Source: Candidatus Zipacnadia bacterium (lineage in GTDB: Bacteria; Armatimonadota; Zipacnadia; Zipacnadales; UBA5352). Taken from it: DNA of 59,798 nt. The DNA lies in NCBI GenBank assembly GCA_029820295.1, contig JALGVA010000015.1, positions 1 to 59,798 on the forward strand. Reading direction: 5' to 3'. Positions 39,798-58,773 of this stretch are shown piece by piece; position 1 is the stretch's first letter, and each line of letters starts with the position of its first letter. The notes under the pieces are model-generated. The model searched no databases, was not told the DNA's origin, and saw nothing but the letters and a program-made list of their open reading frames with translations. Position numbers and translations under genes: made by a program.

Positions 39798-39834
39798 GAT
39801 CATCCCTCCCGGAGGTCGCGGTGACCTTCCGGCG

Positions 39835-42800: not shown

Positions 42801-43257
42801 CGCCCACGCCTACGAAGACCAGGCCCGCACCCTCGGTCACCGGCTTGAGCACCTTGTATTGCTGCTCGGACGACATGTTGTCCATGCCGATGCCGTAGAA
42901 CAGGAAGCAGTCCCAGTCCTGCTCCAGCAGGTCGAGCATGCGCTGCTCGCCCACCTCGCCGCCGTGCCAGTGGGTGTCCGGGCTGTCCACGATGCGCGCC
43001 CAGAACACCGCCTCCAGCTCGACGTCGAAGCGTTGCATGAGCTCGACGCCCACGCGCGGGTTGGTGCCGCGCCCGTCGCAGAAGAGCAGCACGCGCGTGG
43101 GCTCTCCCGCGTAGGGCTGGGCCCAGTCGGTGTGCGGCGTGGGGTAGTCGAGGGTCATCGCGTGATCGACCTCCAGCTCCGCCCGGTCCTGCGCCAGCAG
43201 GCACGGAGCGGCGGCGATCAGCGCGATCATGGTGAGCGTGGCGATCAATCGACTCAT
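39835..43257 (-). CDS. Large secreted GH42-like glycoside hydrolase
   Basis: A 1140-aa protein with a signal peptide ('IATLTMIALIAAAPCLLAQ'). An N-terminal ThuA/GATase-like part ('TRVLLFCDGRGTNPRVGVEL') and beta-sandwich domains precede a TIM barrel with 'QHGVFVWSLGDEVTTTGSC' (possible acid/base Glu in SLGDE) and 'YLQEVYGDLDALNASWGTDF', a GH42-style pattern. Further on, 'HVAFHNIVRDLGYQFRYVTD' and 'LLILPRIEALGPEEAQVIRD' form the beta-galactosidase trimerisation-like domain. A C-terminal Ig-like domain ends it. Exact specificity is unknown; GH42 enzymes act on beta-galactosides or alpha-arabinopyranosides. GGGAGG precedes the ATG. Confidence 0.78.
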   Translation of the reverse strand: MSRLIATLTMIALIAAAPCLLAQDRAELEVDHAMTLDYPTPHTDWAQPYAGEPTRVLLFCDGRGTNPRVGVELMQRFDVELEAVFWARIVDSPDTHWHGGEVGEQRMLDLLEQDWDCFLFYGIGMDNMSSEQQYKVLKPVTEGAGLVFVGVGDDRVLKDANQIADLPPILARGPVGEAWTVGQGRAVRMPWRPEIDYYEGWEVDYDYWAEQLGRAVLWAAGHEPQATMTLDVGPAHFDWNVTKNITLDHAGTIVGDNPRARLRVRRAGGPSIDLQERPLQPRAFTWQVGSLPAGDYHADAWIVSDAGVETWTSTPFTVTSDPRVGGVLLDSDWGEVGDRISGRAIVEGAPGPDDRLRVGLFDRRGRLLAQQTTPAAAGETRFQFGIEPWMPMLVRVDAALFRNPPGDEPASVIDSAYAYCRVTQRHRGRFNFLIWDTPSGTLAPYAEQSLAEHSVTLQLKSGNPPLMLSAFDIAWVPYTTRIMTPKTEDGIMEPFCWNDEAAVQAHVQAKAEDYIPARQHGVFVWSLGDEVTTTGSCLSPYCAEAYRGYLQEVYGDLDALNASWGTDFTDWAQVGLSREGDNEEANSLAEGNYPRWFDRQAFQSWNFVQFCRAYAEAYSAIDPLARTGFEGAGRFSAGDDLDLIIRSNGFWSPYPGVADEVIRSIAPRDFPRSNWMGYTKDADSLLAKYWRMVTRGCDAVWWWRWDCIGRFHGWLAPDLRPFPAVAEILEDTQFVRDGLGDLLLHSEMLDDGIAMLYSYPSTFACEVEDGPGYGSYESAHVAFHNIVRDLGYQFRYVTDRMMRLGEFEADRYRLLILPRIEALGPEEAQVIRDFVAGGGVVIADVRPAIYDGHCKPLAQGLLDEVFGISTSGRAAAAVGPAEPADGMTLESLAVDPTVTVTTGVARGEADGVPLIITNRFGDGAAVLLNFTAASLPPLGVADTPAAVADLMLDLIGRAGEHPPAMRLRTADGDRLRNIEVTRWQDGDIQIVSLFRQSGSRETATVVLPAARHVYDLRTGEHLGETARFQAEVVPCRAGFFALTGLPVATPDLRVEPASPARGTVATASISVAGAEGLHAFKVTARAGDAPLDWLDQVVIAGAEPVEFAVPLAYNDPAGEYTITARELFSRGDTSTTVNVQ

Positions 43258-43288: not shown

Positions 43289-44461
43289 TCACAGCTCGTG
43301 CAGCAGCTCGACCAGCTTCACGTCCCACTTGAAGCTGTTGTAGATGTCGATGGAGCGCAGCAGCTCCTCCTCGGCGGCCACGCCGGGCGCCTCGCCGCGG
43401 GCCGGCTCGGCCGCCTCCAGCCACGCCTGCATCTGTCCGATCTGCTCGGCGAGCGCCTCGCGCGCGGCCTCGGAGGCCAGCGCGCGCTGCACCTCGGCGC
43501 GCGCCTCGGCGATGTCAAAGCCCGCGACCGGAGCGGGCGTGAAGTCGGCGTCCTCCAACAGCGCGCGCACCTCGTCTGCGCGCCGGGACACCTCGGCCAG
43601 CGCATCCGCGTTGGTGACGCCGTTGTGGTCCCAGAACGCCATGCGCACCCGCGTGGTGTCGGCGGGCAGGGTGATGTTGGTGGTGACCGCGTAGCCGCCG
43701 GGCGCGAAGCGGATCTCACCGTCCTCGGGCGGAACGATCAGCATCGAGCATGGCCCGGCGCCCTCGCCCTTGGCGACGTCGAAGATGTCGTCGTAGTAGA
43801 CCGCCCACCAATTCTCCGCCAGCGAGCCGGTCACGTCGTCGCCCTGCTCGACAAGCCGGCTGGGCGTCTGGATGCGGCGCGCGCCGTCGCGCCTGTTCCA
43901 CGCAGTGAAGTAGCTGGGATAGCAGCGCAGCTCGAGGCCGACCGAGGTGATCTCCGTCACCGGCTCGATGGCGATCTCGCACAGCAGGCAGTCGTAGCCG
44001 GGCAGGCCGACGAAGCGCGCGCGCACGTTGGCGGCTTCATCGCGCCAGACGAGGTCGAGGATGGCGCGCTCGGGGCCGCTCTCCACCGCCATCATGCTCG
44101 ACAGCGGCGTGGTGCCGATGTCGTGGCCGTTGAGGCGGATGAACAGGAACCCGCTGTGGTACCAGTTGGCCGACGAGGGCCCCGGCATCCCGATGTAGCC
44201 CTCGATCGGGACGACGCGCCCCTCATGCGCCGGGTCCACGCAGGCCTTCCAGGCGATGCGATAGCTCCGCTCGCTCAGGCTGAAGGTAGCGACCTGCTCG
44301 CGGTGCATATGGTTGGGGTGGTCGCCGTCGGGGCTCAAGCGGCGCTCCTTCGCAGGTCCGAGGCTCAGGCCGACGCCCGTCGGCCCGTCATCGGCCGGAC
44401 ACGGACACACCGCCATGAGCATGATGAGCGCGAGGGTTGCGACGACGTAGCGACCCAGCAT
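43289..44461 (-). CDS. Secreted beta-rich protein of unknown function
   Basis: A 390-aa protein with a signal peptide ('VVATLALIMLMAVCPCPA') and AAGGAG before the ATG. The body is beta-rich with many aromatic residues ('NWYHSGFLFIRLNGHDIGTT', 'VGLELRCYPSYFTAWNRRDG', 'AENWWAVYYDDIFDVAKGEG'), reminiscent of carbohydrate-active beta-sandwich proteins. The last ~100 residues are helical and acidic ('EEELLRSIDIYNSFKWDV'). I do not recognise a named family. It heads the minus-strand operon that continues with the GH42-like and CBM9-like genes 31 and 37 bases apart, and is divergent from the DUF6067-like gene, so it is probably part of the same degradation system. Confidence 0.7.
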   Translation of the reverse strand: MLGRYVVATLALIMLMAVCPCPADDGPTGVGLSLGPAKERRLSPDGDHPNHMHREQVATFSLSERSYRIAWKACVDPAHEGRVVPIEGYIGMPGPSSANWYHSGFLFIRLNGHDIGTTPLSSMMAVESGPERAILDLVWRDEAANVRARFVGLPGYDCLLCEIAIEPVTEITSVGLELRCYPSYFTAWNRRDGARRIQTPSRLVEQGDDVTGSLAENWWAVYYDDIFDVAKGEGAGPCSMLIVPPEDGEIRFAPGGYAVTTNITLPADTTRVRMAFWDHNGVTNADALAEVSRRADEVRALLEDADFTPAPVAGFDIAEARAEVQRALASEAAREALAEQIGQMQAWLEAAEPARGEAPGVAAEEELLRSIDIYNSFKWDVKLVELLHEL

Positions 44462-44480
44462 CGCTGACCGCTCCTTCCGC

Positions 44481-44500
44481 CGGCGGAGAATATTTCGCCG
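44481..44500. promoter_or_regulatory. Possible operator in a divergent intergenic region
   Basis: CGGCG (44481-44485) and CGCCG (44496-44500) flank a centre containing AATATT, an AT-rich island in very GC-rich DNA. It lies in the 245 bases between two oppositely transcribed carbohydrate genes, which otherwise hold no gene. Confidence 0.25.
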
Positions 44501-44520
44501 CGCGCCCGTGCGTCCCCTGC

Positions 44521-44544
44521 GCGCGGCACCAGCCGGACGGCACG
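44521..44544 (+). repeat. Dispersed repeat copy 2
   Basis: Contains ACCAGCCGGACGGCACG and matches 22552-22575 at 21 of 24 positions. The 5' flank CGCGCGCCCG is also shared. It lies in the divergent intergenic region 44462-44706. Confidence 0.4.
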
Positions 44545-44706
44545 GGCGTCGGTGGGCGCGGCGTCTCGCCCGGCCGGTGCCCGCGGGCGTAGCCACGTCC
44601 GGATGCTCGGGCGCGGGGATGGCACTCCGGGCAGGGCGGCGGACCGTGCGCGCCGAAGCTGTCATACAGACAGGGATCGACGGGCCGCGCCGATGGAGGG
44701 AGAGCA

Positions 44707-47700
44707 ATGATGCGATCGATGGCCGTGTGGGTGAGCGTGTTCGTCTGCGTCGGCGCCACGTGGGCGCAGGAGCCGGTGCTGCCGCTGGTGACTGTCGGGC
44801 CCGTGGCTGTTGAGGTCACTGTTGACGGGGAGATCGGCGGGAATGAGTGGGCAGGCGCGACGGGCGTGGGGGCCTTCATGGAGCTGGGGGGGGCGCACAG
44901 CCCGCTATGCGGCTGCCGGGTCGGCACTGATGATCGCGGGCTCGTGCTGGCGTGGACGGTGACGGACACCCCAACGGCCGAGCAGCGCGGGCATGACGGC
45001 TCACTGTGGCTTGATGACGCCGTTGAGGTGTTCCTGCAGCCCCAGGGCTCCGCGGAGTACTACCAGGTGATCGTGAACGCAGCGGGGGACGTCGCCGATG
45101 CGCGCGGCCGCGATCTGTCATGGGACGCACACGTTGAAGCGGCTGTCGGCGCCGGCGGCGGTCGTTGGTGGGCTGAGGTGCGCGTCCCCTGGGCGGACCT
45201 CGGTGGCCGGCCGGACGGGGGCGATCTCTGGCGGGTGAACTTCGCCTGCGATATCGCCGGCGGCACCCCCCTGACCTGGGCGCCGATGCAGAGCAGTTTC
45301 CACGAGCCCGACCAGTTCGGCGAGATGCGCTTTTCCGATGGGCCGCGCGTCGGTCCGGTCGTCGTGGACCGCAGCGAATCTGCGCTCACGATCGCCCCTG
45401 CCGGCGCGCCCGGCATGCGCCTCGACGCGACACTTGTCAGGGACGACGAAGTCGTCGCGCGCGCAGTCGGTGAGCTTCAGCAGATGTGGGTTCTCGACAT
45501 CCCCCGGCCCGGCCGCTACCTGTTGCGCATGACGGGCGTGACCGAGGACGGCGAGGAGGTCTTCCGACAGGAGGTGCCGGTCTACGTGAAGCCACCCATC
45601 GAGCTGACGCTGCGCAAGGGCCTGCTGCAGGCGATGGAGGTCATCGTCGGCATCGATGCTGAGCAGGCCGACGGCGTGCCCGAGAGCTACCGCATCCTGA
45701 TTAACGGTGAGCGGGCCGCGACCGTTCCCGCGGACCCCGATGCGCCACGCAGCGCGCGCGCGGTCGTGAGCCTCGCGGGCGTCGAGCCGGGCGAGGTGAC
45801 GCTGGCGGTCGAGGCGCTGGCGGGCAGGCAGGTGATCGCCCGCGAGGAGACGAGCTTCGAGCTGCCGCCGCAGCCGGATTACGTCGGCAGCGACATCGGC
45901 GTGAGTGATGAGCTGCCCGCGCCGTGGACGCCGGTGCAGACGGACGGCGACGCGGTGCGCTGCTGGGGCCGCGAGTACGCCTTCGACGGGCAGGCGCTGC
46001 CCGCGCGCATCACGACTGCCGATGCCCAGGTGCTGGCGGGGCCGATGCGGCTGGCGATGGTGGCCGGCGGCCGGCACCGGCGCTGGCGCGACGCCACCCT
46101 GGCGTGGGGCGAGCGCACGCCGACCGCCGCCCAGGGCGTGGTGACCGCGCGGGCCGATGGCGCGGAGCTGGCGTGCGATGTGCGCTGCGAGTTCGACGGC
46201 ATGATGCGCTTCGATCTTGCGGTGACGCCGGCGGAGGGTGTGGCCATCGATGAGTTGGTGCTCGAGATCCCGGTGCGCGCCGAGCACGCGAGGTACCTGC
46301 ACGCCGCCGACGCGAGCTGGGGCGGATCGGTCTCGGGCGCGCTGCCGGCGGAGGGCTGGGAGCATCGCTTCATGCCCTTCGTGTGGCTGGGCGACGAGGA
46401 GCGCGGCCTGCAGTGGTTCGCCGAGACCGACGAGAGCTGGCGGCCCACCGACGCGAACCGCGCGATCACCATCGAGCGGGGCGAGGAGGCGGCGACGCTG
46501 CGCCTCCACTTCGTCGAGGAGGCGCTGGAGCCCGGCGAGGCCTTCCGCGCGACCTTCGGCCTGCAGGCCACGCCGGTCAAGCCGCTGGACCCGGACCACC
46601 GCGAGTGGCACATCACCCACGGCGCGTTCTACGGGATGGAGAACGCGACCGCGTCGTCATCGGCCTACCTGGCCTACCCGGCTGAAGGGAACATCGCGCT
46701 GGATGCCGGGACGGTGGAGATGTGGGTCAAGCCGCTGTTCGACCCGGCGGTCGAGGTCACGCCGGCCAACCGCGGCAGCTACAACCGCGAGCTGTTCCGC
46801 CTGGTGCTCGACAACGGCGACCATGTGGGCTTCTACTGGAACATCGTCGACCGCAACCTGCGCCTCTACAGCCGCATCGGCGGCGAGGTCGTGCTCTACG
46901 TGACGGTCGGGCAGACGGAGCCGTGGGAGCGGGAGAGCTGGCACCGGGTCGGTTTCACCTGGGGCGAGGAGGCGGCCGTCTGGATCGACGGCGTGAAGCG
47001 CACCGCGAAGCCGTGGGAGAGTCTGATCGAGGGGACGCTGGAGGGCGCGCAGATCATCGTCGGGTCGCCGCCGGCGGCAACGCCGTGCGAGTTCGCGGTC
47101 GATGAGCTGCGCATCAGCGACGTCGCCCGTGACCTGAGCGAGGCGCCGGCGCCGGGGCAGACCGACGCGCATACGCTGCTCTACGACAGCTTCGACGAGG
47201 GCATCGATGCCCCTGCCCCGGCCGGGCGGATGGTCAGCAACCGCAGCCAGATCAGCGACACCGAGGGCGTGTCGGGACTCGCTGTCGCAATCGGCGACCC
47301 GGACGTGAGCCTGCTGGACGTGCTCAAGGCACAGGGCGTCAACACCCTCGTCTACCATCAGAGCTGGACCGAGATCCAGGCCTACGGTTCGACGCAGATC
47401 CACCAGCAGGCGCTGCATGACCTGGTCGCGGCCTGCCACGAGCGCGACATCCGGCTGCTGCTCTACTTCGGCTACGAGCTGTCCGACGCCGCGCCCGAGT
47501 GGGACGCCTACTCGGACGAGGTGCTGGTCTGGCCGCGCCGGGGCGGCTATACCCGGCGGGATTACCCGCAGACCGCCTACATCTGCTGCTACCACAGCGC
47601 GTGGAAGGAGTACGTGCTGACCGGCATCGCGCGCATGATCGACGAGTATGACATCGACGGCGTCTACCTCGACGGCACCACCGAGCCCTTCGCGTGCGCC

Positions 47701-48438
47701 AACGACCTGCACGGCTGTGGCTATGACGCGCCGGACGGCACGCGCCATCGCACCTACCCGATCTTCGAGGTGCGCGACCTGATGCGGCGCCTGCGCCAGA
47801 TTGTCAGGTCGCGCAAGCCCGAAGGGCTGATCTCGGCGCACATGTCCGCGACCGTCTCGATCCCCACGCTGGCGTTCGTCGATGACTACTGGGACGGCGA
47901 GCAGCTCGACGTGCAGGAGCATGGCTTCCGCCTGCCGCTGGATGCCTTCCGCGCCGAGTTCATGGGCCACAACTGGGGCGTTCCGGCGGAGCTGCTGTGC
48001 TACTACCGCCGGCCCTTCACCTACGAGGAGGCCATCGCGCTGGGGCTGCTGCACGATGTGCCCGTGCGGCCCTATGTGCGCAGCGAGCTGCTGCCGCTGA
48101 TGTCGAGCGTGTGGGCCGCATGGGACGCCATCGACATCAACGCCGCGACCTGGTACCCGTACTGGGAGGGCGGGCCGGTCACGACGAATGCCCCGGACGT
48201 GCTGGTCTCCACACACGTGGGCCCCGGCGGCGCGCTCATCGTGGCGATGAACGCCAGCTCCGAGCCGGTGCAGGCGGAGCTTCAGGCGCCGCCCGACGCG
48301 CTGGGCATGCAGGCCGGCGCGCCGGTGGCCAGGAACGTGCTGACCCGCCGCGATGTTGATTACACCGACGGCCGCCTGGCGGTTGCCCTCGAGCCCTGGG
48401 AGGCGGCCGTGCTGCTCGTGACAGCGCGGGAACCGTGA
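44707..48438 (+). CDS. Secreted multi-domain glycoside hydrolase-like protein (CBM9 + DUF6067-like + LamG-like)
   Basis: A 1243-aa protein with GGAGGG before the ATG and a signal peptide ('SMAVWVSVFVCVGATWAQ'). Domain order: a CBM9-like sandwich (about 25-215, 'VEVTVDGEIGGNEWAGATG'); beta domains; a DUF6067-like supersandwich ('VRCWGREYAFDGQALPARIT', 'GDEERGLQWFAETDESWRP'); a LamG/concanavalin-type domain (about 640-820, 'GTVEMWVKPLFDPAV', 'VDELRISDVARDL'); and a TIM barrel ('LDVLKAQGVNTLVYHQSWTE', 'IDGVYLDGTTEPFACAND'). In DUF6067 proteins the LamG-like insert interrupts the hydrolase region, as here. Catalytic residues are not established. It heads a plus-strand operon with three beta-helix genes. 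Confidence 0.75.
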   Translation: MMRSMAVWVSVFVCVGATWAQEPVLPLVTVGPVAVEVTVDGEIGGNEWAGATGVGAFMELGGAHSPLCGCRVGTDDRGLVLAWTVTDTPTAEQRGHDGSLWLDDAVEVFLQPQGSAEYYQVIVNAAGDVADARGRDLSWDAHVEAAVGAGGGRWWAEVRVPWADLGGRPDGGDLWRVNFACDIAGGTPLTWAPMQSSFHEPDQFGEMRFSDGPRVGPVVVDRSESALTIAPAGAPGMRLDATLVRDDEVVARAVGELQQMWVLDIPRPGRYLLRMTGVTEDGEEVFRQEVPVYVKPPIELTLRKGLLQAMEVIVGIDAEQADGVPESYRILINGERAATVPADPDAPRSARAVVSLAGVEPGEVTLAVEALAGRQVIAREETSFELPPQPDYVGSDIGVSDELPAPWTPVQTDGDAVRCWGREYAFDGQALPARITTADAQVLAGPMRLAMVAGGRHRRWRDATLAWGERTPTAAQGVVTARADGAELACDVRCEFDGMMRFDLAVTPAEGVAIDELVLEIPVRAEHARYLHAADASWGGSVSGALPAEGWEHRFMPFVWLGDEERGLQWFAETDESWRPTDANRAITIERGEEAATLRLHFVEEALEPGEAFRATFGLQATPVKPLDPDHREWHITHGAFYGMENATASSSAYLAYPAEGNIALDAGTVEMWVKPLFDPAVEVTPANRGSYNRELFRLVLDNGDHVGFYWNIVDRNLRLYSRIGGEVVLYVTVGQTEPWERESWHRVGFTWGEEAAVWIDGVKRTAKPWESLIEGTLEGAQIIVGSPPAATPCEFAVDELRISDVARDLSEAPAPGQTDAHTLLYDSFDEGIDAPAPAGRMVSNRSQISDTEGVSGLAVAIGDPDVSLLDVLKAQGVNTLVYHQSWTEIQAYGSTQIHQQALHDLVAACHERDIRLLLYFGYELSDAAPEWDAYSDEVLVWPRRGGYTRRDYPQTAYICCYHSAWKEYVLTGIARMIDEYDIDGVYLDGTTEPFACANDLHGCGYDAPDGTRHRTYPIFEVRDLMRRLRQIVRSRKPEGLISAHMSATVSIPTLAFVDDYWDGEQLDVQEHGFRLPLDAFRAEFMGHNWGVPAELLCYYRRPFTYEEAIALGLLHDVPVRPYVRSELLPLMSSVWAAWDAIDINAATWYPYWEGGPVTTNAPDVLVSTHVGPGGALIVAMNASSEPVQAELQAPPDALGMQAGAPVARNVLTRRDVDYTDGRLAVALEPWEAAVLLVTAREP

Positions 48439-48485
48439 CATCCGCCCGGCCGCCGCGATAGCGCGATGAACCAGGAGGTCTCGCG

Positions 48486-50690
48486 ATGCAGCGATGCACG
48501 CTCATGCTCGTGCTGCTGATGCTCGTGACCGCGATGGCCTTATGCCAGCGCAACCAGGAGATGATCGACCGCGTCGCGGCGGGCGAGGTGCAGGAGGCGC
48601 GCGCGTCGTGGTGGGGCTTCGACGCGGAGGACGCCACGGCGTGTCTGCAGGCGGCCATCGACTCGGGCGTGCCCAGGCTCATCGTTGAGGACATGGGCAG
48701 CCCGTGGATCGTGACGCCTCTGACGCTGGTCAGCAACCAGGAAATCGTCTTCGAAGAAGGGGTCGAGCTGCTCGCGAAGCGCGGCGAGTTCCACGGTGGG
48801 GGCGACGCGCTGGTGACCGCCCGGGACGTCGAGAACGTGACGCTGCGCGGCGACGGCGCAACCTTCCGCATGTGGCGCGAGGACTACGCCAACCCCGAAC
48901 TCTACACCAAGGCTGAGTGGCGCCACTGCCTGCAACTGCGCGGCGTGCGCAACGTTGAGGTGCGCGGGCTCACACTCGCGGAGAGCGGCGGCGACGGCAT
49001 CTACCTCGGCACCGGCCCCGATGGCGCCACCAACATCGACGTGACCATCGGGGATGTGGTCTGCGACGGGAACTACCGGCAGGGCATCTCGGTCATCACC
49101 GCCCAGAACCTGGTGATCGAAGACAGCGTGCTGCGCAACACCCACGGCACCTGGCCGCAGGCGGGCATTGACTTCGAGCCCAACGACCCGGCCGAGCGCC
49201 TGGTCAACATCGTCATGCGCAACTGCGTGAGCGAGAGCAACACCTACGGCTACGTGGTGAACATCGCCCCGCACAACGCCCCCACCGCTCCGGTGTCGCT
49301 GCGCTTCGAGAACTGCCGCGCGGTCGGCAACACCAACCCCGGCTTCCAGTTCGCCATCGCGGGCAACGCCGACGTTCTGGCGCCTGCCGGTGCGGAGACC
49401 GATGGGCCTGACGAGACACGGATCGACATCGCGCTGCGCGGCTGCCTGACCGAGCGCAACTCCTCGACCGGCTACGTCGTCAGCCTGCGAGGGCTCGACG
49501 GCGGGCCTGATGCCGTGGCGGTGCGCGTCGAGGACTGCCGCTCAACCGACGATGCTGCCATGGGCGTCAACGTGCTCAGCTCGGTGATGGGCGTGATCGA
49601 CTTCACAGACTGCATCTTCGAACGCAGCGGCAGCTCGGGCATCGGCATCACCAAGCCGGCCGATCTCGGCCGGCTGCGCTTCGCGAACTGCCGGGTGCTC
49701 GACTGCGCGGCCGGGCAGGCGAGCATCGCGCCGATCATGTTCGCCAGCGGCGGAGCCGCCGGCGCAGCCGTGGGCGGCGTCGAGTTCGACGATGTGCTGG
49801 TGCGCGACGCGCTGGAGCGTCCGCCGCTGGGCTACAACGATCGCGCGGGCGGCACGCCCGTCCGCGACGTCACCGGCACGCTGATCGTCGAGCGCGACAG
49901 CCAGCGCACCCCGGTCGAGCTGACTGAGGAGCTGATCGCGCGGTGGATGCCGGCGTCGAGGATACGCGACATCCCGCGGCTGAGCCTCGAGGGGATGGCC
50001 CTGGAGCCGCTGGCGGCGGAGCTGCCGGCGGTTGCCGCACAGTCATCGCCCTGGCCGCTGGTTCGTGGCGTCGGCAGCTACATACTCTATGCTCAGGCGG
50101 GCGACGAGGTCGCCTTCACCGTCCGCTACCTGCAGGTCGGGCCCTACGCGGGCGGCGAGATGGTGGTGGTCATCACAGGGCCCACGGGCGATGAGGTGCA
50201 CCGGGCCACCGCAGCCTTCAAGGCGGACACCACGGTGAGCTTCACCGCGCCGGCGACCGGCCTGTACCGCTTCACCCTCAACGCGGGCAACAACCGTTCG
50301 CAGATCCTCGCCCCCTCGCACCCGATGGCGCTGGTCATCGATGACCGGCCGGTGGGCTTGAACCGCTCCGGCGGCCGCCTCATCTTCTACGTGCCGCCGG
50401 GCACGACACAGTTCGGCGTGCGCGTCGCCGGCCAGGGGACCGGCGAGGGCATCAGGGCGACGCTGCTGGATCCGCGGGGCGGGGTGTTCGGGCAGGTGGA
50501 CAACCAGTTCGAGACGCATCAGTTCGAGGTGGGCCTCGACCCGCCGAGCGCGGGCGAGGTGTGGGCGCTGCAGCTCGAGCGCCCCTCGCAGATGACGTGG
50601 GACGACCACTCCGTGGACCTGCGCGGCGTACCTCCACTGCTGTCGGCGGCCGGCGCGACGCCGCTGGCGCCCGTGCCGCAGGCGAGATGA
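48486..50690 (+). CDS. Secreted right-handed beta-helix protein, paralogue 1
   Basis: A 734-aa protein with AGGAGGT (48473-48479) and a signal peptide ('TLMLVLLMLVTAMALCQ'). After a conserved N-terminus ('SWWGFDAEDATACLQAAIDS', 'EDMGSPWIVTPLTLVSNQEI'), typical of pectate-lyase-3-like folds, come beta-helix coils ('NVEVRGLTLAESGGDGIYLG', 'NLVIEDSVLRNTHGTWPQAG', 'VSLRFENCRAVGNTNPGF'). The C-terminal ~200 residues form two beta-sandwich domains ('SYILYAQAGDEVAFTVRYLQ', 'RLIFYVPPGTTQFGVRVAGQ'). It has 71 residues more than paralogue 3 because one beta-helix module is repeated (near 49300-49520). It probably binds or cleaves a polysaccharide; catalytic residues are not identified. Confidence 0.8.
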   Translation: MQRCTLMLVLLMLVTAMALCQRNQEMIDRVAAGEVQEARASWWGFDAEDATACLQAAIDSGVPRLIVEDMGSPWIVTPLTLVSNQEIVFEEGVELLAKRGEFHGGGDALVTARDVENVTLRGDGATFRMWREDYANPELYTKAEWRHCLQLRGVRNVEVRGLTLAESGGDGIYLGTGPDGATNIDVTIGDVVCDGNYRQGISVITAQNLVIEDSVLRNTHGTWPQAGIDFEPNDPAERLVNIVMRNCVSESNTYGYVVNIAPHNAPTAPVSLRFENCRAVGNTNPGFQFAIAGNADVLAPAGAETDGPDETRIDIALRGCLTERNSSTGYVVSLRGLDGGPDAVAVRVEDCRSTDDAAMGVNVLSSVMGVIDFTDCIFERSGSSGIGITKPADLGRLRFANCRVLDCAAGQASIAPIMFASGGAAGAAVGGVEFDDVLVRDALERPPLGYNDRAGGTPVRDVTGTLIVERDSQRTPVELTEELIARWMPASRIRDIPRLSLEGMALEPLAAELPAVAAQSSPWPLVRGVGSYILYAQAGDEVAFTVRYLQVGPYAGGEMVVVITGPTGDEVHRATAAFKADTTVSFTAPATGLYRFTLNAGNNRSQILAPSHPMALVIDDRPVGLNRSGGRLIFYVPPGTTQFGVRVAGQGTGEGIRATLLDPRGGVFGQVDNQFETHQFEVGLDPPSAGEVWALQLERPSQMTWDDHSVDLRGVPPLLSAAGATPLAPVPQAR

Positions 50691-50725
50691 TGATCCAGAC
50701 CGATGACGCACAGGAGGAATCACCG

Positions 50726-52649
50726 ATGCATCGATGCGCGCTCGTGCTTGCTCTGCTGATGCTCGTGGCCGCGACGGCCTCGTGCCAGCGCAATCAGGAG
50801 ATGATCGACCGCGTCGCCGCCGGGGAGCTGCAGGAGGCGCACGCCTCCTGGTGGGGCTTCGACGCCGAGGACTCCACCCAGGCCCTGCAGGCGGCCATCG
50901 ACTCGGGAGTGCCAAAGCTCATCGTCGAGGACATGGGCAGCCCGTGGGTGGTCATGCCCCTGCAGCTTCGCAGCAACCAGGAGATCGTGTTCGAAGAGGG
51001 CTGCGTGATCCTGGCGAAGCGCGGCGAGTACAGGGACTCCAACGCCACGCTGGTTACGGCCTCGAACGTCGAGAACGTGACCCTCAACGGCTACGGCGCC
51101 ACCTTCCGCATGTGGCGCGAGGACTACGACAACCCCGACCTCTACCAGCACGCCGAGTGGCGGCACTGCCTGTCGATCCGCAGCTCGAGCAACATCCAGG
51201 TGCTCGGGCTCACGCTGGAGGACAGCGGCGGCGACGGTATCTACCTGGGCACCGCCACCCAGTGGGTGACCAACAAGGACATCACGATCAGGGACGTGGT
51301 GTGTGAGAGCAACTACCGGCAGGGCATCTCGGTCATCACCGCCGAGAACCTGCTCATCGAGAACACCATCATGCGCAACACTCGCGGCACGCCGCCGCAG
51401 GCGGGCATCGACTTCGAGCCGAACAACCCGGAGGAGCGGCTGGTCAACGTGGTCATGCGCAACTGCCTGAGCGAGAACAACAACAGCTACGGCTACGTGC
51501 TCGCCATCAGCCCGCTCAAGGCCACCTCCGAGCCCATCTCCATGCGCTTCGAGAACTGCCGCTCGGTCAATGACGCCGGGCAGGGCTTCTGCTACGCCGC
51601 CGGAGGCAGCGTCGAGACCGCCGTCGGCGGACTGGCGGAGTTCATCAACTGCACCGTCGAGGGCAGCGGCGGCGCTCAACACCGGCCAGAGAGACATCGC
51701 CCCCATCGTCTTCCGCAGCGGGCGAGACACTGACGACCCGGCGGGCGGCGCGGAGTTCGTCAACGTACGCGTGACCGACGCGCGCGTGCACCAGCCCATG
51801 GCCTACATGGACTACGGCGGCGTCGCCATCGCGGACGTGACCGGGAACCTGATCCTCATCGACGAGCAGGGCAACGAGACCGACGTGGCGCTGACCCCCG
51901 AGGTCCTGGCGGAGTGGATGCCGCAGATCGTGCTGCGCGACATCCCACGACTGAGCCTCGAGGGACTGACGCTGGAGCCGATGGAGGTTCCTGTGTCCGC
52001 TGACACCACGCCGAGCTGGCCGTGGCAGCGGCGCGTGGGCACCTACGTGGTCTACGCCGACGCCGGCGACGAGGTAAGCTTCCACGCCGAGTTCGCGCAG
52101 GTGGGCAACTACGCCGGTGACGAGATGCCCATCACCGTGACCGCTCCCTCAGGCGAGGTCGTACACGAGGCGACCGTGCCCTTCCAGGATGAGGCGACCA
52201 TCAGCTTCACGGCGCCCGAGACCGGCGCGTACATGGTCGTCGCCGATGGTGGCGGCAACAAGATGCGGCTGTCGGCCTGGTCAAATCCGATGGCCCTCAC
52301 CGGCGGCGGCGAGGCCGTGCGCTTCATGCAGTACGCCGGCGACCTGCAGTTCTACGTGCCCGTGGGCACCACGCTCTTCGGCGTCCGCATCTGGGGCGAG
52401 GGCGTGGGGGAGGGCGTGCAGGCCACGCTCATCCGCCCCGATGGCGAGGTCTTCGGCAGTGTCGATGACCAGGTGCAGACCTACCAGTTCGAAGTGGAGC
52501 TGGAGCAGCCGTCGCGGGGCGAGGTGTGGACGCTGCGCACCGCACCGCCGAGCAACACCACGTGGGAGGACTTTTACGTGGACCTGCGTGGCATCCCGCC
52601 GCTGCTGACCCCTGCGGGCGCGTCCATGGTTGTGGCCGCGGATGACTGA
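50726..52649 (+). pseudogene. Beta-helix protein paralogue 2, broken by an internal deletion
   Basis: The start has AGGAGG (50712-50717) and the same signal peptide and N-terminus as its neighbours. The N-terminal frame is intact to 'EFINCTVEGSGG' near 51670 and then runs into a stop at 51733. The homologous C-terminal half continues in another frame from 'ALNTGQRDIAPIVFRSG' to the stop at 52649. Compared with paralogue 3, about 68 bases are missing at the junction, removing the coil 'VSKPAERGLVRFENCRVLDC' and shifting the frame. The 3' half keeps coding character, so the deletion is recent, or the C-terminal part is still made by re-initiation. The ribosome site and spacing remain good. Confidence 0.75.
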
Positions 52650-52696
52650 TCCGCCATGCATATCCACCCAGAGATGACGATCAGGAGGTTCTGCCG

Positions 52697-54688
52697 ATGC
52701 ACAGATGCGCGATCGTGCCGGTCGTGCTGGCGCTGGCCGCCGGGTCAGCGTGGTGCCAGGTGAATCAGGAGATGATAGACAAGGTGGCCGCCGGCGAGGT
52801 GCAGGAAGCGTACGCCTCGTGGTGGGGCTTCGACGCCGAGGACGCCACTGCGTGCCTGCAGGCCGCCATCGACTCGGGTGTGCCCAGGCTCATCGTCGAG
52901 GACATGGGCAGCCCGTGGATCGTGACGCCCATCACGCTGGTGAGCAACCAGGAGATCGTGTTCGAGGCGGGCTGCGTGCTGCAGGCCAGGCGCGGCGAAT
53001 ACGAGAGCACCGGTGCCACGCTCATGACCGCGCGCGACGTGGAGAACGTCATCCTGCGCGGCGACGGCGCGACCTTCCGCATGTGGAAGGAGGACTACGC
53101 CAACCCCGAACTCTACGCCAAGGGCGAGTGGCGCCACTGCCTGCAGTTGCGCGGCGCGACCAACGTCGAGGTCCACGGTCTCACGCTCAGCCGCAGCGGC
53201 GGCGACGGCATCTACCTCGGGATCGGCTCCGAAGGCCGGACCAACACCAACATCACCATCAAGGACGTGGTGTGCGACGACAACTACCGCCAGGGCATCT
53301 CGGTGATCACCGCCGAGAATCTGCTGATTGAGAACACCGTCATGCGCAACACCGGCGGCACGCCGCCGCAGGCGGGCATTGACTTCGAGCCCAACCGGCC
53401 CGAGGAGCGGCTGGTCAACGTGGTCATGCGCAACTGCCTGACCGAGAACAACGCCTCGACCGGCTACTTCTTCTACCTGCGCGCGCTCAACGGCGAGTCC
53501 GAACCGGTCTCGATCCGCCTGGAGAACTGCCGCTCGGTCGGCGACGGCAGCATGGGCACGGGCGTGGTGACCCACGAGACGCTCGCGGGCGGCGTGAGCG
53601 GCACCATCGAGTTCGTGGACTGCATCTTCGAGGGCAGCCGCAACGCGGGCATCAGCGTCTCCAAGCCCGCCGAGCGCGGCCTGGTGCGCTTCGAGAACTG
53701 CCGGGTGCTCGACTGCGCGACCGAGATGCTGGGCGTCTCGCCCATCATGCTCGCGAGTCGGCTGGGCGGCGATACCGCCGTGGGCGGCATCGAGTTCGAC
53801 CGCGTGCTGATCCGCGACCCCGTGGATCGGCCGCCCATGAGCTACAACGACCAGGCCGGCGGCACACCGCTGCGGGACATCACCGGCACGCTCATCATCG
53901 AGCAGGACGGCGAGCAGACCACGGAGGAGATCACCGACGAGCTGCTCGCGGAGTGGATGCCGGTCATCGCGCTCAAGGACACCCCGCGGCTGGAGGTCGA
54001 TGAGGCGGCGCTGGTGCCGCTGGCCCCCGAGACGCCGATCGCCCCCGACGAGGCGCGCTGGCCGGTGGTGCGCCGGGCGGGGATCTACCTGCTCTACGCC
54101 AACGCCGGCGATGACGTCCGCTTCACCGTCAGCCACCAGCAGGTCGGGCGCTACGCGGGCGAGGACATGCCGGTGGTCGTGACCGCCCCGTCGGGGGCCG
54201 AGGCCCTGCGCGCCACCGCGCCCTTCAAAGCGGAGGCGGAGGTGGGCTTCATCGCGCCGGAGACCGGTGTCTACCGCGTCTCGCTCGACCCCGGCGCCAA
54301 CCGCTTCCAGATCGCCAACGCATCGAACCCGATGGCGCTGCTGCTGGCGGACGGCGCGGTGAACCTGATCCACTCGTCAGGGAGCTTCAGCTTCTACGTG
54401 CCGCCCGGCACCACCGAGTTCGGCGTGCGTGTGGCGGGGCAGGGCCCGGGTGAGGCGATCAAGGCGGCGCTCATCGATCCGCAGGGAGAGGTCTTCGGCG
54501 AGGTGGACAACCAGTTCCAGACGCATCAGTTCGAGGTGGAGCTGGATCCGCCGAGCCAGGGCGAAGTGTGGACGCTGCGCCTCGAAGCGCCCTCGGGCAG
54601 CACCTGGGAGGACCACTACGTGGACCTGCGCGGGCTGCCACCGCTGCTCTCGGCCGCAGGCACGCCGCTGCTCGTACCGGCGCAGTAG
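52697..54688 (+). CDS. Secreted right-handed beta-helix protein, paralogue 3
   Basis: A 663-aa protein with AGGAGGT (52683-52689) before the ATG and a signal peptide ('IVPVVLALAAGSAWCQ'). It has the same layout as paralogue 1: conserved N-terminus ('SWWGFDAEDATACLQAAIDS'), beta-helix coils ('LTLSRSGGDGIYLGIGSEGR', 'VRFENCRVLDCATEMLG'), then two C-terminal beta-sandwich domains. Long stretches of DNA are nearly identical to paralogue 1, pointing to recent duplication or gene conversion. It is the last gene of the four-gene operon begun by the DUF6067-like hydrolase and is followed by a strong hairpin at 54705. Confidence 0.82.
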   Translation: MHRCAIVPVVLALAAGSAWCQVNQEMIDKVAAGEVQEAYASWWGFDAEDATACLQAAIDSGVPRLIVEDMGSPWIVTPITLVSNQEIVFEAGCVLQARRGEYESTGATLMTARDVENVILRGDGATFRMWKEDYANPELYAKGEWRHCLQLRGATNVEVHGLTLSRSGGDGIYLGIGSEGRTNTNITIKDVVCDDNYRQGISVITAENLLIENTVMRNTGGTPPQAGIDFEPNRPEERLVNVVMRNCLTENNASTGYFFYLRALNGESEPVSIRLENCRSVGDGSMGTGVVTHETLAGGVSGTIEFVDCIFEGSRNAGISVSKPAERGLVRFENCRVLDCATEMLGVSPIMLASRLGGDTAVGGIEFDRVLIRDPVDRPPMSYNDQAGGTPLRDITGTLIIEQDGEQTTEEITDELLAEWMPVIALKDTPRLEVDEAALVPLAPETPIAPDEARWPVVRRAGIYLLYANAGDDVRFTVSHQQVGRYAGEDMPVVVTAPSGAEALRATAPFKAEAEVGFIAPETGVYRVSLDPGANRFQIANASNPMALLLADGAVNLIHSSGSFSFYVPPGTTEFGVRVAGQGPGEAIKAALIDPQGEVFGEVDNQFQTHQFEVELDPPSQGEVWTLRLEAPSGSTWEDHYVDLRGLPPLLSAAGTPLLVPAQ

Positions 54689-54758: not shown

Positions 54759-57356
54759 CTACTCCATCACGATCCACCCGCGGCTGACCGGATCGGCGTG
54801 CGCGCGAATGCTGGGGAACCACGACGAGATCTCCGCGTCGGCGCCCTGCACGTTGCGCACGAAGTTCATCGGCAGCAGCGCACCGGACCGGGCATCGAAG
54901 CCGAATTCGCCGAGCGGCACGCGGATCTCGGCGGTCCACATGCCCTCCTGGACGGTCGCCGCCCAGTCGGCGTCGAGGTCGTAGGCCAGCGCCTCGCTGT
55001 ACTCCATTTCCTCGCTGCGGCGCCACTGGTCGAAGAACGCGCCCGCGGCGTTGATGATGAGCTGCACGTACTCGTACTCGCCCACGCGCGGGTTCATGAA
55101 GATCTCGACCGAGTCGTCGTGCCAGGTCGAGCCGTCGCGCGGCGCGGCGTTGGTCACCAGGTCAGAGGTGTCCTGCTCACACTCGAGCGCGATGTACAGG
55201 TCGTCGCCGTCGTGGACCACCCGGGCGCGGGTGACGTGGTCGGCATCCGTCGCCATGCCCCACTTGATGAAGTCGGTCAGCACGTCGGCGCGCCCCCAGA
55301 CCGGCTCGTCGAGCCGCCCGTCGATGGTCGGCGCCTGCTCGGCGCGCGCCGCAGTCCCGACCCTGGTGGCCATTGCGCGCACCTGCTCGACGATGGTGCG
55401 ATAGCCCGCCGAGCCGCCCTCGCCGAAGACCTCATCCACGCGGGCCGAGATGCGCTCGCGCAGCGCCGCGGCGTCGATCGCCCCCGCAGCGGCGGCCGCC
55501 TCCAGCTCCTCGGTGATGAGCCTCGAGGCGATCCAGCGCTTGGCCACGGTCTGGCCGCCGGCTTTCAGCGGGTTGATCCAGCCCGGCTTGGGAGGATGGA
55601 ACGCGATCGGGTCATCGCCCACGCGCTCGGCCATGTAGGCGTCGATGTCGGTCTCGCCCACCTGCTCGACCATGCGGCGCATGGCGGCGGCGATATCCTC
55701 CATGGACGCGCCCTCCTCGATCATCTCCTCGATGCCGTAGGAGGCCCAGTAGTTGCCGGCCAGCAGCTTGGTGATCTCAAAGGTCTTGCGGAAGAACTGG
55801 ATGCGGTCGCGCACGATGTCGTCCTGGGCCAGCGCGGTGGCCCCATCGAGCAGCCCCATCATCTCGTCCACCAGGTCCGGCGGGAAGATGCGGAACTGCT
55901 GCGGATCGGCGGCGAGGCGGTAGGCCCAGTGACCGTGGCCGAAGTTGTTCTCGCGCCACGCCTGCTCCGCCAGCGCGAAGTAGCGCTTCATCGGCGCGGC
56001 GGCCGTGCGGAACATGCGCTCGTTCCAGTCATCGGTGATCGCGTCCACGTCCGCATACGGGTCCCACAGCAGCCGCGCCATCACGTAGAGCTTGGGGCCG
56101 TCGAGGCCCCAGTTGGGGTAGACCTCGGCGTAGAAGCCCCTGACCTTGTGCGCTACCGCGTGCTGGATGGCTTCCTGGAAGAGGTGGTTGTAGATGCGCG
56201 GGATGGCGAAGCCCATCCCGTAGCCGTACTCGTAGATGCCCATCTGGTTCGTGACCGCCGCCCAGCGCTCCAGCATGGTCTCGTCCTGGCGCTTGAAGAC
56301 CGGGTCCCAGTAGTCCGAGCGGTTGCTCGTCAGGTAGGGGATTATGTTGCGGTGCAGCCGCATCCCCGTCGGGGGCAGGATCACCGCCGAGTAGGCCAGG
56401 CAGCCCAGCATCTTGTCGGGATGGTCCTGCTCCAGGTTCTCGGCAATCCGGTTGAGCCAGGTGTAGTACAGGATCGACTTGTCGCCGGAGAAGCCGTGCC
56501 ATTCGGGGAGCGGATGATCGACCAGCTTGCAGTTGGGGCACTCGCAGTAGCCATGGCCGTCGTTGATGCCGAAGGAGAACGATTCGAGGTCGGGGTTGGC
56601 CGCGAAGGCGGCGCGCGCCACGTCGGCCGCGTGCTGAATGCCGCCCGGGTCGGTCATGCACGGCTGCCAGCTATGGTCATCGGGCCCCGGGCGGTAGCGC
56701 TCGTCGCCGTGCATCGGGAAGTACTCGGGGTGCTCGTCGAACAGCTCCGGCGGGAAGATGTTGAGCAGGTTGTGGTGGAAGGCGTAGCGCCCGTGGATGC
56801 GCTGGCGCAGGCTCCACACGCCGCCGTAGTGCGCGCCGCTCCACAGCCGCGACAGGATGGCGGGCGTGTGGATCTGCCGCACCTCGGGCACAGTGATCGT
56901 CTCGTGGGCCGGCACATCCTCGCCCAGCGGCCCGGGGATGAGCCAGCGCACGCCCACGTAGTCCTCGAGGAACTGGCAGACCGCCCAGTAGGTCGCCCAC
57001 GGCGAGGGCCCGGCCAGCATGGCGGCGGCGTCGGTGACGATGACCGCGAAGGCGTCGCGGTCCATGCCGTAGCGCTCCAGGCCCAGCGCGGCCTTGACCG
57101 GCGCGCACATGCCCACGTAGATCGGCGGGCCCTGCGCCGGCTCGTAGTCGTCCTCATCGACCACCGCGAAGTCGCGGCCGGTCGAGGTCTTGAGGTAGCT
57201 CGCCAGGTCCTGGCAGGCGCTGAGCGCCTCGCCGCGCGCCAGCCGCTCCCGCACGATCACGGCCTGGGTGTCGCCGTCAAGCACGGTGAAATCCGCCACG
57301 GCGCCCGTCACCGTCACGAGCGTCAGGATCAGGGTCACGGTCAAGCTCATGCGCAT
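54759..57356 (-). CDS. DUF4838 glycoside hydrolase-like protein with C-terminal CBM9-like domain
   Basis: An 865-aa protein starting at ATG 57356 with GGAGG upstream and a signal peptide ('LTVTLILTLVTVTGAVA'). The N-terminal part has an alpha-glucuronidase/hexosaminidase-type pre-barrel domain ('ACQDLASYLKTSTGRDFAVV'). The DUF4838 barrel follows ('NLLNIFPPELFDEHPEYFP', 'SFSFGINDGHGYCECPNCK', 'RLHRNIIPYLTSNRSDYWDP'). The C-terminal ~175 residues form a CBM9-like domain ('QAPTIDGRLDEPVWGRADVL', 'DDSVEIFMNPRVGEYEYVQL'). DUF4838 proteins are common in uronate-degrading loci, but their reaction is little studied. It follows the TIM-barrel gene at 57439-58773 on the same strand after 82 bases. Confidence 0.83.
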   Translation of the reverse strand: MRMSLTVTLILTLVTVTGAVADFTVLDGDTQAVIVRERLARGEALSACQDLASYLKTSTGRDFAVVDEDDYEPAQGPPIYVGMCAPVKAALGLERYGMDRDAFAVIVTDAAAMLAGPSPWATYWAVCQFLEDYVGVRWLIPGPLGEDVPAHETITVPEVRQIHTPAILSRLWSGAHYGGVWSLRQRIHGRYAFHHNLLNIFPPELFDEHPEYFPMHGDERYRPGPDDHSWQPCMTDPGGIQHAADVARAAFAANPDLESFSFGINDGHGYCECPNCKLVDHPLPEWHGFSGDKSILYYTWLNRIAENLEQDHPDKMLGCLAYSAVILPPTGMRLHRNIIPYLTSNRSDYWDPVFKRQDETMLERWAAVTNQMGIYEYGYGMGFAIPRIYNHLFQEAIQHAVAHKVRGFYAEVYPNWGLDGPKLYVMARLLWDPYADVDAITDDWNERMFRTAAAPMKRYFALAEQAWRENNFGHGHWAYRLAADPQQFRIFPPDLVDEMMGLLDGATALAQDDIVRDRIQFFRKTFEITKLLAGNYWASYGIEEMIEEGASMEDIAAAMRRMVEQVGETDIDAYMAERVGDDPIAFHPPKPGWINPLKAGGQTVAKRWIASRLITEELEAAAAAGAIDAAALRERISARVDEVFGEGGSAGYRTIVEQVRAMATRVGTAARAEQAPTIDGRLDEPVWGRADVLTDFIKWGMATDADHVTRARVVHDGDDLYIALECEQDTSDLVTNAAPRDGSTWHDDSVEIFMNPRVGEYEYVQLIINAAGAFFDQWRRSEEMEYSEALAYDLDADWAATVQEGMWTAEIRVPLGEFGFDARSGALLPMNFVRNVQGADAEISSWFPSIRAHADPVSRGWIVME

Positions 57357-57438
57357 CGCTGCCAACCTCCGCAGATCGGAGTAAGCACGCCGTGTGGTTC
57401 GCCCCCCAGGGGCCCCAGGCCTGCCCGCCGCCCCGGAA

Positions 57439-58773
57439 TCAGCCCTGTTCCGCCTCGAAGTCACGCCAGAACTCGGCGATGATCTCGGCCACGGCGTCGA
57501 AATCCTCGTTGCCCGGCGTCTTGTCCAGGCAGTAGCTGACCACGCCCTGCACCCGGCCCTCGCGCACGAACTGCAGGCACATCTCGTACTTGGCCGCGAT
57601 CAGCTCGGCCGTGCCGGGGTCATCGTTGCGCTTCTCGTAGGCGCTGCGCGAGCCCGAGGGCATGAGGATCAGCGGCAGGTCGATGGGCTCCTCCGGCTCC
57701 CAGGGGGGAGTGGCCGCGGTCACGAAACTCCCGCGCACGCTCTCCGTCCAGGCGTCGACGGCGGTAATGTCCGCCACCTCCAGCCCCTCGGCCTTGAGGT
57801 CCGAGAAGATCGCGGTGACGCCGAAGTTGCCCACGCCCGTGCGGTCGAAAAGGCCCAGCGAGAGCGTCACTTCGTCCTCGCCCGCGACGACCTCCGACAG
57901 GTCGAGGGTCACCTCACCGTCATCCTCGCCGGCCACGTCCTCCTCCCACACCACCTCGTCGCCAACGCGCGCCTGCATCATGTGATAGCCCGCGGTCGGG
58001 CCATCGAAGTCATCGCTGAAGCTGAAGGTCAGCGCTGCGGCCTCGGCATCAAGCACGCGCACCGTCTGCTGCAGGAAGCCGCAGTCGCCGGCCTGTGAAG
58101 GCGTGTCCCACGGATGGGTCACGCTGCCCTGCGGTGGGACGATGAACTCGCCGTTCAGCCAGGTCAGCGCGCGCTCGACCGCTTCGGGGTTGCGTGGGTA
58201 GGCGGCCACCACGCCATCGACCACCGTCCCCAGCATCTGGATGAAGCGCGAGCCGATCTGATTGAAGTACATGAGCGGGTAGAACTTGATCTCGGGGTTG
58301 ATGGCACGTCCCGCGTCCACCATCGCCCGGATCGACTCGGGCGTGAACCAGCGCGGGTTCACGTTGCCCCAGAAGTCATCGATCACGTAGCCGACCAGGT
58401 TGTCGTGCTCGAGCGACAGACGCGCGATCTCCTCGGCCCAGCGCACGTAGTCGAGCCGGAAGGGCTCAGAATAGGGGAACTGCTCGTGTGTGGCCGCTGT
58501 CTCCGACGGCGGCACCAGGTAGACCCACACGGTGATGTCGGCCTCTGCCGCCAGGGGCAGGAACTCGTGCAGGTCCTCCCAGTCGTTGGGGCTGTGCCAG
58601 ATCAGCCACATGTAGGTGTTCGCGCCCAGCTCCTGCAGGCGCTCGACCATCAGCTCGCAGTCCACGTGCTCACCATCGCGCAGCTCCGCGTCGTAGTCGC
58701 CGACGAACGGCGTCTGCGCGCAGCATCCTGCCGCAATCAGCGTGAGGGTCAGCATCAGCAGGGCGGCTCTCAT
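57439..58773 (-). CDS. Secreted TIM-barrel glycoside hydrolase-like protein
   Basis: A 444-aa protein with a leader 'ALLMLTLTLIAAGCCAQ', which could be a lipoprotein signal (AAGC). A TIM barrel is suggested by 'MVERLQELGANTYMWLIWHS', 'ADITVWVYLVPPSE', 'HDNLVGYVIDDFWGNVNPRW' and, after an inserted beta-sandwich (about 225-340, 'AALTFSFSDDFDGPTAGYH'), 'YCLDKTPGNEDFDAVAEIIA'. The Asp pair in 'YVIDDFWG' lies where catalytic acids of such barrels are often found. The family is not recognised. GGGAG lies 10 bases before the ATG. It is divergent from the carbon-nitrogen hydrolase gene and probably cotranscribed with the DUF4838 gene. Confidence 0.68.
   Translation of the reverse strand: MRAALLMLTLTLIAAGCCAQTPFVGDYDAELRDGEHVDCELMVERLQELGANTYMWLIWHSPNDWEDLHEFLPLAAEADITVWVYLVPPSETAATHEQFPYSEPFRLDYVRWAEEIARLSLEHDNLVGYVIDDFWGNVNPRWFTPESIRAMVDAGRAINPEIKFYPLMYFNQIGSRFIQMLGTVVDGVVAAYPRNPEAVERALTWLNGEFIVPPQGSVTHPWDTPSQAGDCGFLQQTVRVLDAEAAALTFSFSDDFDGPTAGYHMMQARVGDEVVWEEDVAGEDDGEVTLDLSEVVAGEDEVTLSLGLFDRTGVGNFGVTAIFSDLKAEGLEVADITAVDAWTESVRGSFVTAATPPWEPEEPIDLPLILMPSGSRSAYEKRNDDPGTAELIAAKYEMCLQFVREGRVQGVVSYCLDKTPGNEDFDAVAEIIAEFWRDFEAEQG

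What the first reader, a model, noticed from the sequence alone, without database searches (positions are those of the whole stretch)
48486..54688. Tandem triplication of a secreted beta-helix protein
Three consecutive genes share signal peptide, N-terminal domain, beta-helix and twin C-terminal beta-sandwiches, each with its own AGGAGG site. Long nearly identical DNA stretches point to recent duplication or conversion. Together with the DUF6067-like gene ahead of them they may form a binding or cleavage set for one polymer with graded specificities.
Basis: partly seen in the sequence, partly recalled or inferred. Interest (0 to 1): 0.52.

Follow-up and report, generated by a model that had tools for sequence, protein, structure and literature searches.

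The report
Old array of secreted beta-helix enzymes
Three neighbouring genes for secreted, probably sugar-polymer-cutting beta-helix proteins sit side by side in an uncultured bacterium; they are old relatives rather than fresh copies, and the middle one is broken as assembled.

Summary
Genes 1 (48486-50690) and 3 (52697-54688) are intact. Gene 2 (50726-52649) carries a 62-nt deletion relative to its same-genus orthologue and is out of frame, so as assembled it is a pseudogene or an assembly error. The copies are not nearly identical: about 79-80% over the first ~845 nt, 65-73% further on, longest exact runs 32-40 nt. They are not a recent triplication: genes 1 and 2 have closer kin in other genomes, and one clade of the three is rejected in both gene halves. 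Gene conversion is supported only at the 5' end. AlphaFold gives a confident beta-helix plus two C-terminal sandwiches. Conserved residues concentrate in the first rungs and match a signature shared with phage tailspikes. Best reading: secreted polysaccharide depolymerases of the pectin-lyase-like fold, with a detachable accessory module also found on DUF4838 and DUF6259 proteins. Substrate and chemistry are unknown. The nearest named relative is Ca. Zipacnadia (Armatimonadota). New member of a known kind, of modest interest.

The parts
44707..48438 (+). 1243-aa protein: CBM9-like, GH123_N, LamG-like and GHL6-like domains; first gene of the co-directional run
   Evidence: Pfam; 62% relative beside a beta-helix copy in G005
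48486..50690 (+). gene 1, intact, 734 aa; long-helix subtype with ~70 extra residues (about 293-366)
   Evidence: model (insert has low confidence); same block implied by the two-stretch matches of G001_C830_a and G006_C40
50726..52649 (+). gene 2, disrupted: open to 51733 (335 aa, first 317 homologous), the rest in another frame from about 51675
   Evidence: 62-nt deletion against G001_C830_b
51675..51676 (+). deletion junction in gene 2 (exact base is ambiguous in the alignment)
52697..54688 (+). gene 3, intact, 663 aa
   Evidence: AlphaFold model (mean pLDDT 91.1, pTM 0.82)
52802..53971 (+). gene 3 beta-helix (about residues 36-425) with the invariant motifs E144-W145-R146, D170, R198-Q199, D229 and E231
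54059..54685 (+). gene 3 twin C-terminal beta-sandwich module (about residues 455-663), also fused to other proteins
48473..48478 (+). AGGAGG before gene 1
50712..50717 (+). AGGAGG before gene 2
52683..52688 (+). AGGAGG before gene 3

Best explanation
The genes encode secreted polysaccharide-active beta-helix enzymes (depolymerases), probably made from one transcript with the GH123_N protein upstream. The first rungs of the helix carry an invariant acidic/arginine patch (E144, R146, D170, R198, D229, E231) that most likely binds and cuts a sugar chain lying along the helix. The two C-terminal sandwiches are an accessory module, perhaps for binding or positioning, shared with other glycosidase-like proteins of these bacteria. 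Shown: the fold prediction, the conservation, the module sharing and the gene order. Inferred: export, co-transcription, catalysis and the role of the module. The array is an old, slowly turning-over set. Genes 1 and 2 have their nearest kin side by side in a second species of the genus, gene 2's two halves have different histories, the 5' ends have been partly homogenised by conversion, and gene 2 has recently lost its frame (or was misassembled). Hydrolysis versus beta-elimination and the substrate are undetermined.
For: Model: beta-helix plus two sandwiches, pLDDT 91. Structure matches are mostly glycan-active: AlgE6/AlgE4 A-modules Z 38, rmsd 2.3-2.4 over about 330 residues; RbmB lyase Z 34.5; polygalacturonases Z 28-34; tailspikes Z 28-34. 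Of 32 aligned members all keep D170, R198, D229 and E231; 35 of the 71 invariant positions fall in residues 121-250. By DSSP these motifs flank or lie in strands 172-175, 201-203 and 228-230, about one rung apart. The motifs recur in crAss001 gp22 (profile E 2.5e-22) and in Priestia and Vibrio phage proteins; phage relatives occur in 257 of 50,697 records. The C-terminal module is fused to DUF6259 (1) and DUF4838 (3) proteins among 7 partner proteins scanned. Gene gaps are 47, 35 and 47 nt and no terminator-like site was found. Evolution.
Against: No member has a known activity, and no curated enzyme family passes its cut-off. The same fold includes non-catalytic proteins such as the adhesin PfbA (Z 30) and the NosD part of a transporter complex (Z 28), so binding without cutting is possible. 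The conserved patch could partly be structural.
Confidence: 0.6

Rival explanations
1. The proteins bind glycan or cell surfaces (adhesins or scaffold proteins) and do not cut.
For: Beta-helix adhesin PfbA scores Z 30; no enzyme family passes cut-off; twin sandwiches resemble binding modules (inference).
Against: Invariant D/R/D/E on neighbouring rungs in 32 of 32 members, shared with phage tailspike-type proteins, is more than a binding surface usually keeps (inference). The short forms L052, L043 and L044 lack the sandwiches but keep this patch.
Confidence: 0.2
2. Specifically a Ca2+-dependent lyase or C5-epimerase of uronate polymers, as AlgE or RbmB (a special case of the best explanation).
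For: Highest structural scores are AlgE A-modules (Z 38), then an AlgE7-type epimerase/lyase (Z 35) and RbmB (Z 34.5).
Against: AlgE's catalytic Tyr149/His154 (PMC7385640, passages) have no evident counterpart: no His is invariant (H147 in 29 of 32). Equal folds do not show equal chemistry.
Confidence: 0.2
3. Recent tandem triplication.
For: Same order and orientation; 79-80% identity in the 5' part; paralogue-shared sites in the first ~80 codons.
Against: One clade rejected in both halves; nearest kin of genes 1 and 2 are neighbours in another species; paralogue/orthologue dS ratio 1.78 in the 3' part.
Confidence: 0.04
4. The gene 2 frameshift is an assembly error and all three genes are intact in the cell.
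For: Contigs of these genomes often end inside copies; the C272 second copy runs abruptly into unrelated DNA; gene 2 shows no second lesion and dN/dS about 0.15 against its orthologue beyond the break.
Against: The assembled sequence crosses the junction inside a 59.8-kb contig, and no repeat is evident at the edges of the 62-nt gap. Damaged copies also lie inside contigs of other genomes (G003, G028).
Confidence: 0.4

Closest known systems
AlgE mannuronan C-5 epimerase A-module (AlgE4/AlgE6)
   Same: Same beta-helix core, Z 38, rmsd 2.3 A over about 330 residues
   Different: 15-16% identity; AlgE catalytic Tyr/His not evident; two sandwiches in place of AlgE's R-modules
Phage tailspike/tail fibre proteins, e.g. 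crAss001 gp22 (7qoj_J)
   Same: Sequence-level kinship over the first rungs, E 2.5e-22, with GDG-Y, RQGIS and AG-D-EP motifs
   Different: Free bacterial protein with no phage gene among the neighbours scanned; different C-terminus
GH28 polygalacturonases and relatives
   Same: Fold, Z 28-34
   Different: No GH28 Pfam hit at E 0.1; no invariant His or Lys
RbmB, Vibrio polysaccharide lyase
   Same: Fold, Z 34.5; exopolysaccharide depolymerase (PMC11637428, abstract start and passages)
   Different: No match in the sequence-profile search of PDB chains at E 10

Membership tests
Right-handed beta-helix superfamily (Pfam Beta_helix PF13229) | Profile match above the gathering score | tested here: met
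   39.4, 37.9 and 37.7 bits against 25.9
Right-handed beta-helix superfamily (Pfam Beta_helix PF13229) | Right-handed beta-helix in a confident model | tested here: met
   (model of gene 3; gene 1 model)
GH28 | Pfam/NCBIfam GH28-type match above cut-off | tested here: not met
   Not listed at E<=0.1 in Pfam; NCBIfam polygalacturonase and rhamnogalacturonidase hits 12-13 bits against 500-600
GH28 | NTD, DD, GHG and RIK motifs (recalled) | tested here: not met
   No His or Lys among the invariant columns of A1
AlgE epimerase | Catalytic Tyr149, Asp152, His154, Asp178 (PMC7385640) | tested here: inconclusive
   No residue-level superposition available; no invariant His
AlgE epimerase | Calcium-binding R-modules after the A-module | tested here: not met
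   C-terminus is two sandwiches; no such Pfam hit
Phage tailspike | Encoded among virion genes | tested here: not met
   Flanking genes scanned are GH123_N, DUF4838, CBM9, GH42-like and CN_hydrolase proteins
Phage tailspike | Shared core motifs with known tail spike/fibre proteins | tested here: met
   crAss001 gp22; PHROG 2234 tail spike, E 1e-8 for gene 3
Any CAZy family | CAZy/dbCAN profile match or tested activity | not testable with these tools
   dbCAN not held; activity needs the bench

The most novel reading that the evidence does not exclude
An undescribed family of secreted glycan depolymerases of Armatimonadota that shares its active-site signature (GDG-Y / RQG-S / AG-D-EP) with phage tailspikes, carries an exchangeable twin-sandwich module, and evolves in tandem arrays that swap halves and convert their 5' ends.
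Probability: 0.45. Interest if true: 0.45.

Novelty: new member of a known kind. Interest (0 to 1): 0.28.

Why it matters
If right, it gives a sequence signature by which uncharacterised bacterial beta-helix proteins and phage tailspikes can be treated as one depolymerase group, and it names clear residues (D170, R198, D229, E231) to test. It also cautions that apparent tandem triplications in fragmented genomes can hide old paralogues and broken copies.

Tried and rejected
Recent triplication: rejected. Conversion across the whole gene: not supported; the sign is confined to the 5' end. GH28 or pectinase identity: not supported. Twin sandwiches as a clear internal duplication: hhalign probability 26%, E 0.0007, so undecided. 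The gene 1 insert was modelled at pLDDT 28-53 over residues 291-370, so 'extra rungs' is not claimed. A search of viral structures gave mostly phage tail spike/fibre or unnamed proteins and added little. A genome-contig scan named only one relative (L073, Ca. Zipacnadia). Paper searches listed no paper on this family: 'Armatimonadota' + 'beta-helix' gave 2 papers, on other subjects by title; 'DUF6067' gave none; 'Zipacnadales' gave PMC10290634 (passages read: general CAZymes only). The search for gene conversion in beta-helix arrays showed nothing on topic among the 8 listed of 390.

Full report
What is there. Genes 1, 2 and 3 lie at 48486-50690, 50726-52649 and 52697-54688 on the + strand, behind a 1243-aa gene at 44707-48438 with CBM9-like, GH123_N, LamG-like and GHL6-like matches. 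Gaps are 47, 35 and 47 nt, each beta-helix gene has an AGGAGG, and no terminator-like site was found, which suggests one transcript (co-transcription is inferred). The window is a whole contig of a 5.63-Mb, 331-contig genome. The only named relative recovered is a Candidatus Zipacnadia MAG contig (L073); its length (29,078) equals that of G005:C131, a same-family genome. That Zipacnadia is a class of Armatimonadota comes from PMC10290634 (passages).

Gene 2 is broken as assembled. Its 5' frame ends at 51733 and the homologous 3' part lies in another frame. Against the same-genus orthologue G001_C830_b, open through this region, 62 nt are missing (counted by me from the printed alignment). Beyond the break dN/dS against that orthologue is about 0.15 (0.064/0.426) with no further stop, so the event is recent or an artefact. 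Related trouble: the second copy on C272 stops after residue 64 and runs into unrelated DNA, and several other copies end at contig ends. I cannot separate biology from assembly without reads.

Not a recent triplication. Pairwise blastn gives 79-80% over about 845 nt at the 5' end and 65-73% beyond; longest exact runs are 33, 32 and 40 nt between window copies against 56 and 50 nt to orthologues. In trees of the N part (30 rows) and C part (26 rows), gene 1 is nearest to G001_C830_a by path in both; in the C part it groups with G001_C830_a and G006_C40 (99/96), while in the N part that grouping is weaker (93/91). Gene 2 groups by its N part with G001_C830_b (98/97) and by its C part with G006_C52 and G003_C29_b (100/99). 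Gene 3 is poorly placed: by path its nearest row is gene 1 in the N part and G005_C131 in the C part. Holding the three window copies together is rejected (AU p 0.0018 and 4e-5), as is holding gene 2 with its C-part kin in the N tree (p 6e-5) and gene 2 with G005_C131 in the C tree (p 7e-72). These last two groups were chosen after seeing the trees, which weakens their p-values. Genes 1 and 3 together are not rejected in the N part (p 0.09) but are in the C part (p 5e-5). G001_C830_b is cut by its contig end and so is missing from the C tree.

Conversion. With G001 as the second species, the paralogue/orthologue dS ratio is 0.94 (bootstrap 0.80-1.11) in codons 22-245 and 1.78 (1.39-2.34) in the compared part of 345-660; the C ratio exceeded the N ratio in all 300 resamples. 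Sites grouping paralogues against orthologues are 13:40 and 1:99. The first two bins of 40 aligned codons give 8:2 against 11:164 for the rest (Fisher p 1e-7; this split was made after seeing the bins). Strong constraint on the N part (invariant residues, below) also raises its identity.

How widespread. A match at E<=0.001 occurs in 36 of 61 relatives and 53 of 291 genomes of the phylum, counting C-terminal-only matches. Two or more adjacent copies occur in 6 of the 10 genomes of family f1 (G000, G001, G003, G006, G007, G009). Damaged or partial copies lie inside contigs of G003 and G028. Alignment A1 used 32 sequences: one best stretch for most genomes plus gene 1 and C272; loci with internal stops (L028, L032, L041, L042), C-module-only loci (L045, L046) and most further copies of the same genomes were left out.

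Structure and likely function. The gene 3 model has mean pLDDT 91.1 and pTM 0.82. Best structural matches of the helix are AlgE6/AlgE4 A-modules (Z 38), an alginate epimerase/lyase (Z 35), RbmB (Z 34.5), GH28 enzymes and tailspikes, mostly polysaccharide-active, though the adhesin PfbA also scores Z 30. Foldseek alone ranks Klebsiella and Acinetobacter phage depolymerases first, with low TM-scores. Conservation peaks early: invariant columns per region are 1, 13, 35, 4, 3 and 15 for residues 1-22, 23-120, 121-250, 251-343, 344-425 and 426-663, gaps ignored. E144, W145, R146, D170, Y173, R198, Q199, D229 and E231 are unchanged in 32 of 32. The same motifs appear in crAss001 gp22, a Priestia plasmid protein annotated 'glycosyl hydrolase family 28-related' and, with some changes, a Vibrio phage 'pectate lyase superfamily' protein (the printed output was cut before the remaining proteins of that comparison). 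Phage relatives: 257 of 50,697 records, 196 of them Vibrio; plasmids: 10 of 72,556. I read this as a glycan-cutting site with acidic residues and an arginine; whether it hydrolyses or eliminates is open, because such a set fits both GH-type and PL1-type chemistry (recalled).

C-terminal module. Ten further places in the own genome match only the C-terminal part; blastp with residues 431-663 found 9 proteins among the 10 stretches fetched. Of 7 of these scanned with Pfam, 3 carry DUF4838, 1 carries DUF6259, 1 has a weak GH42M hit below cut-off and 2 have none. It is therefore a movable accessory module of glycosidase-like proteins; members L052, L043 and L044 lack it.

Neighbourhood. The 1243-aa gene has a 62% relative in G005 directly before a (partial) beta-helix copy, and a different GH123-like gene precedes G006_C40. 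Other loci have other neighbours, so the pairing is local and not a rule.

Noticed in passing
L053:1733-2890, L061:8894-10660, L063:5484-6686, L070:4470-5915: A URO-D domain gene lies directly upstream, same strand, of the beta-helix gene in four loci from four genomes; why a uroporphyrinogen-decarboxylase-like protein should accompany it is unclear.
   Followed up: partly
L053 (G000:C272) 4968-5159: Second tandem copy stops after residue 64 and continues as unrelated DNA: chimera or real truncation.
   Followed up: partly
window 54759-57464 (-) and 38751-43254 (-): DUF4838 plus CBM9 protein, GH42-like protein and CBM9 protein: the array sits among several glycosidase-like genes.
   Followed up: no
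window 57439-58773 (-) and 43292-44707 (-): Two predicted genes with no Pfam match at the limits used.
   Followed up: no
G003:C29 (L055:9030-9767): A C-terminal-only remnant (residues 380-663) at the end of a four-copy array.
   Followed up: partly
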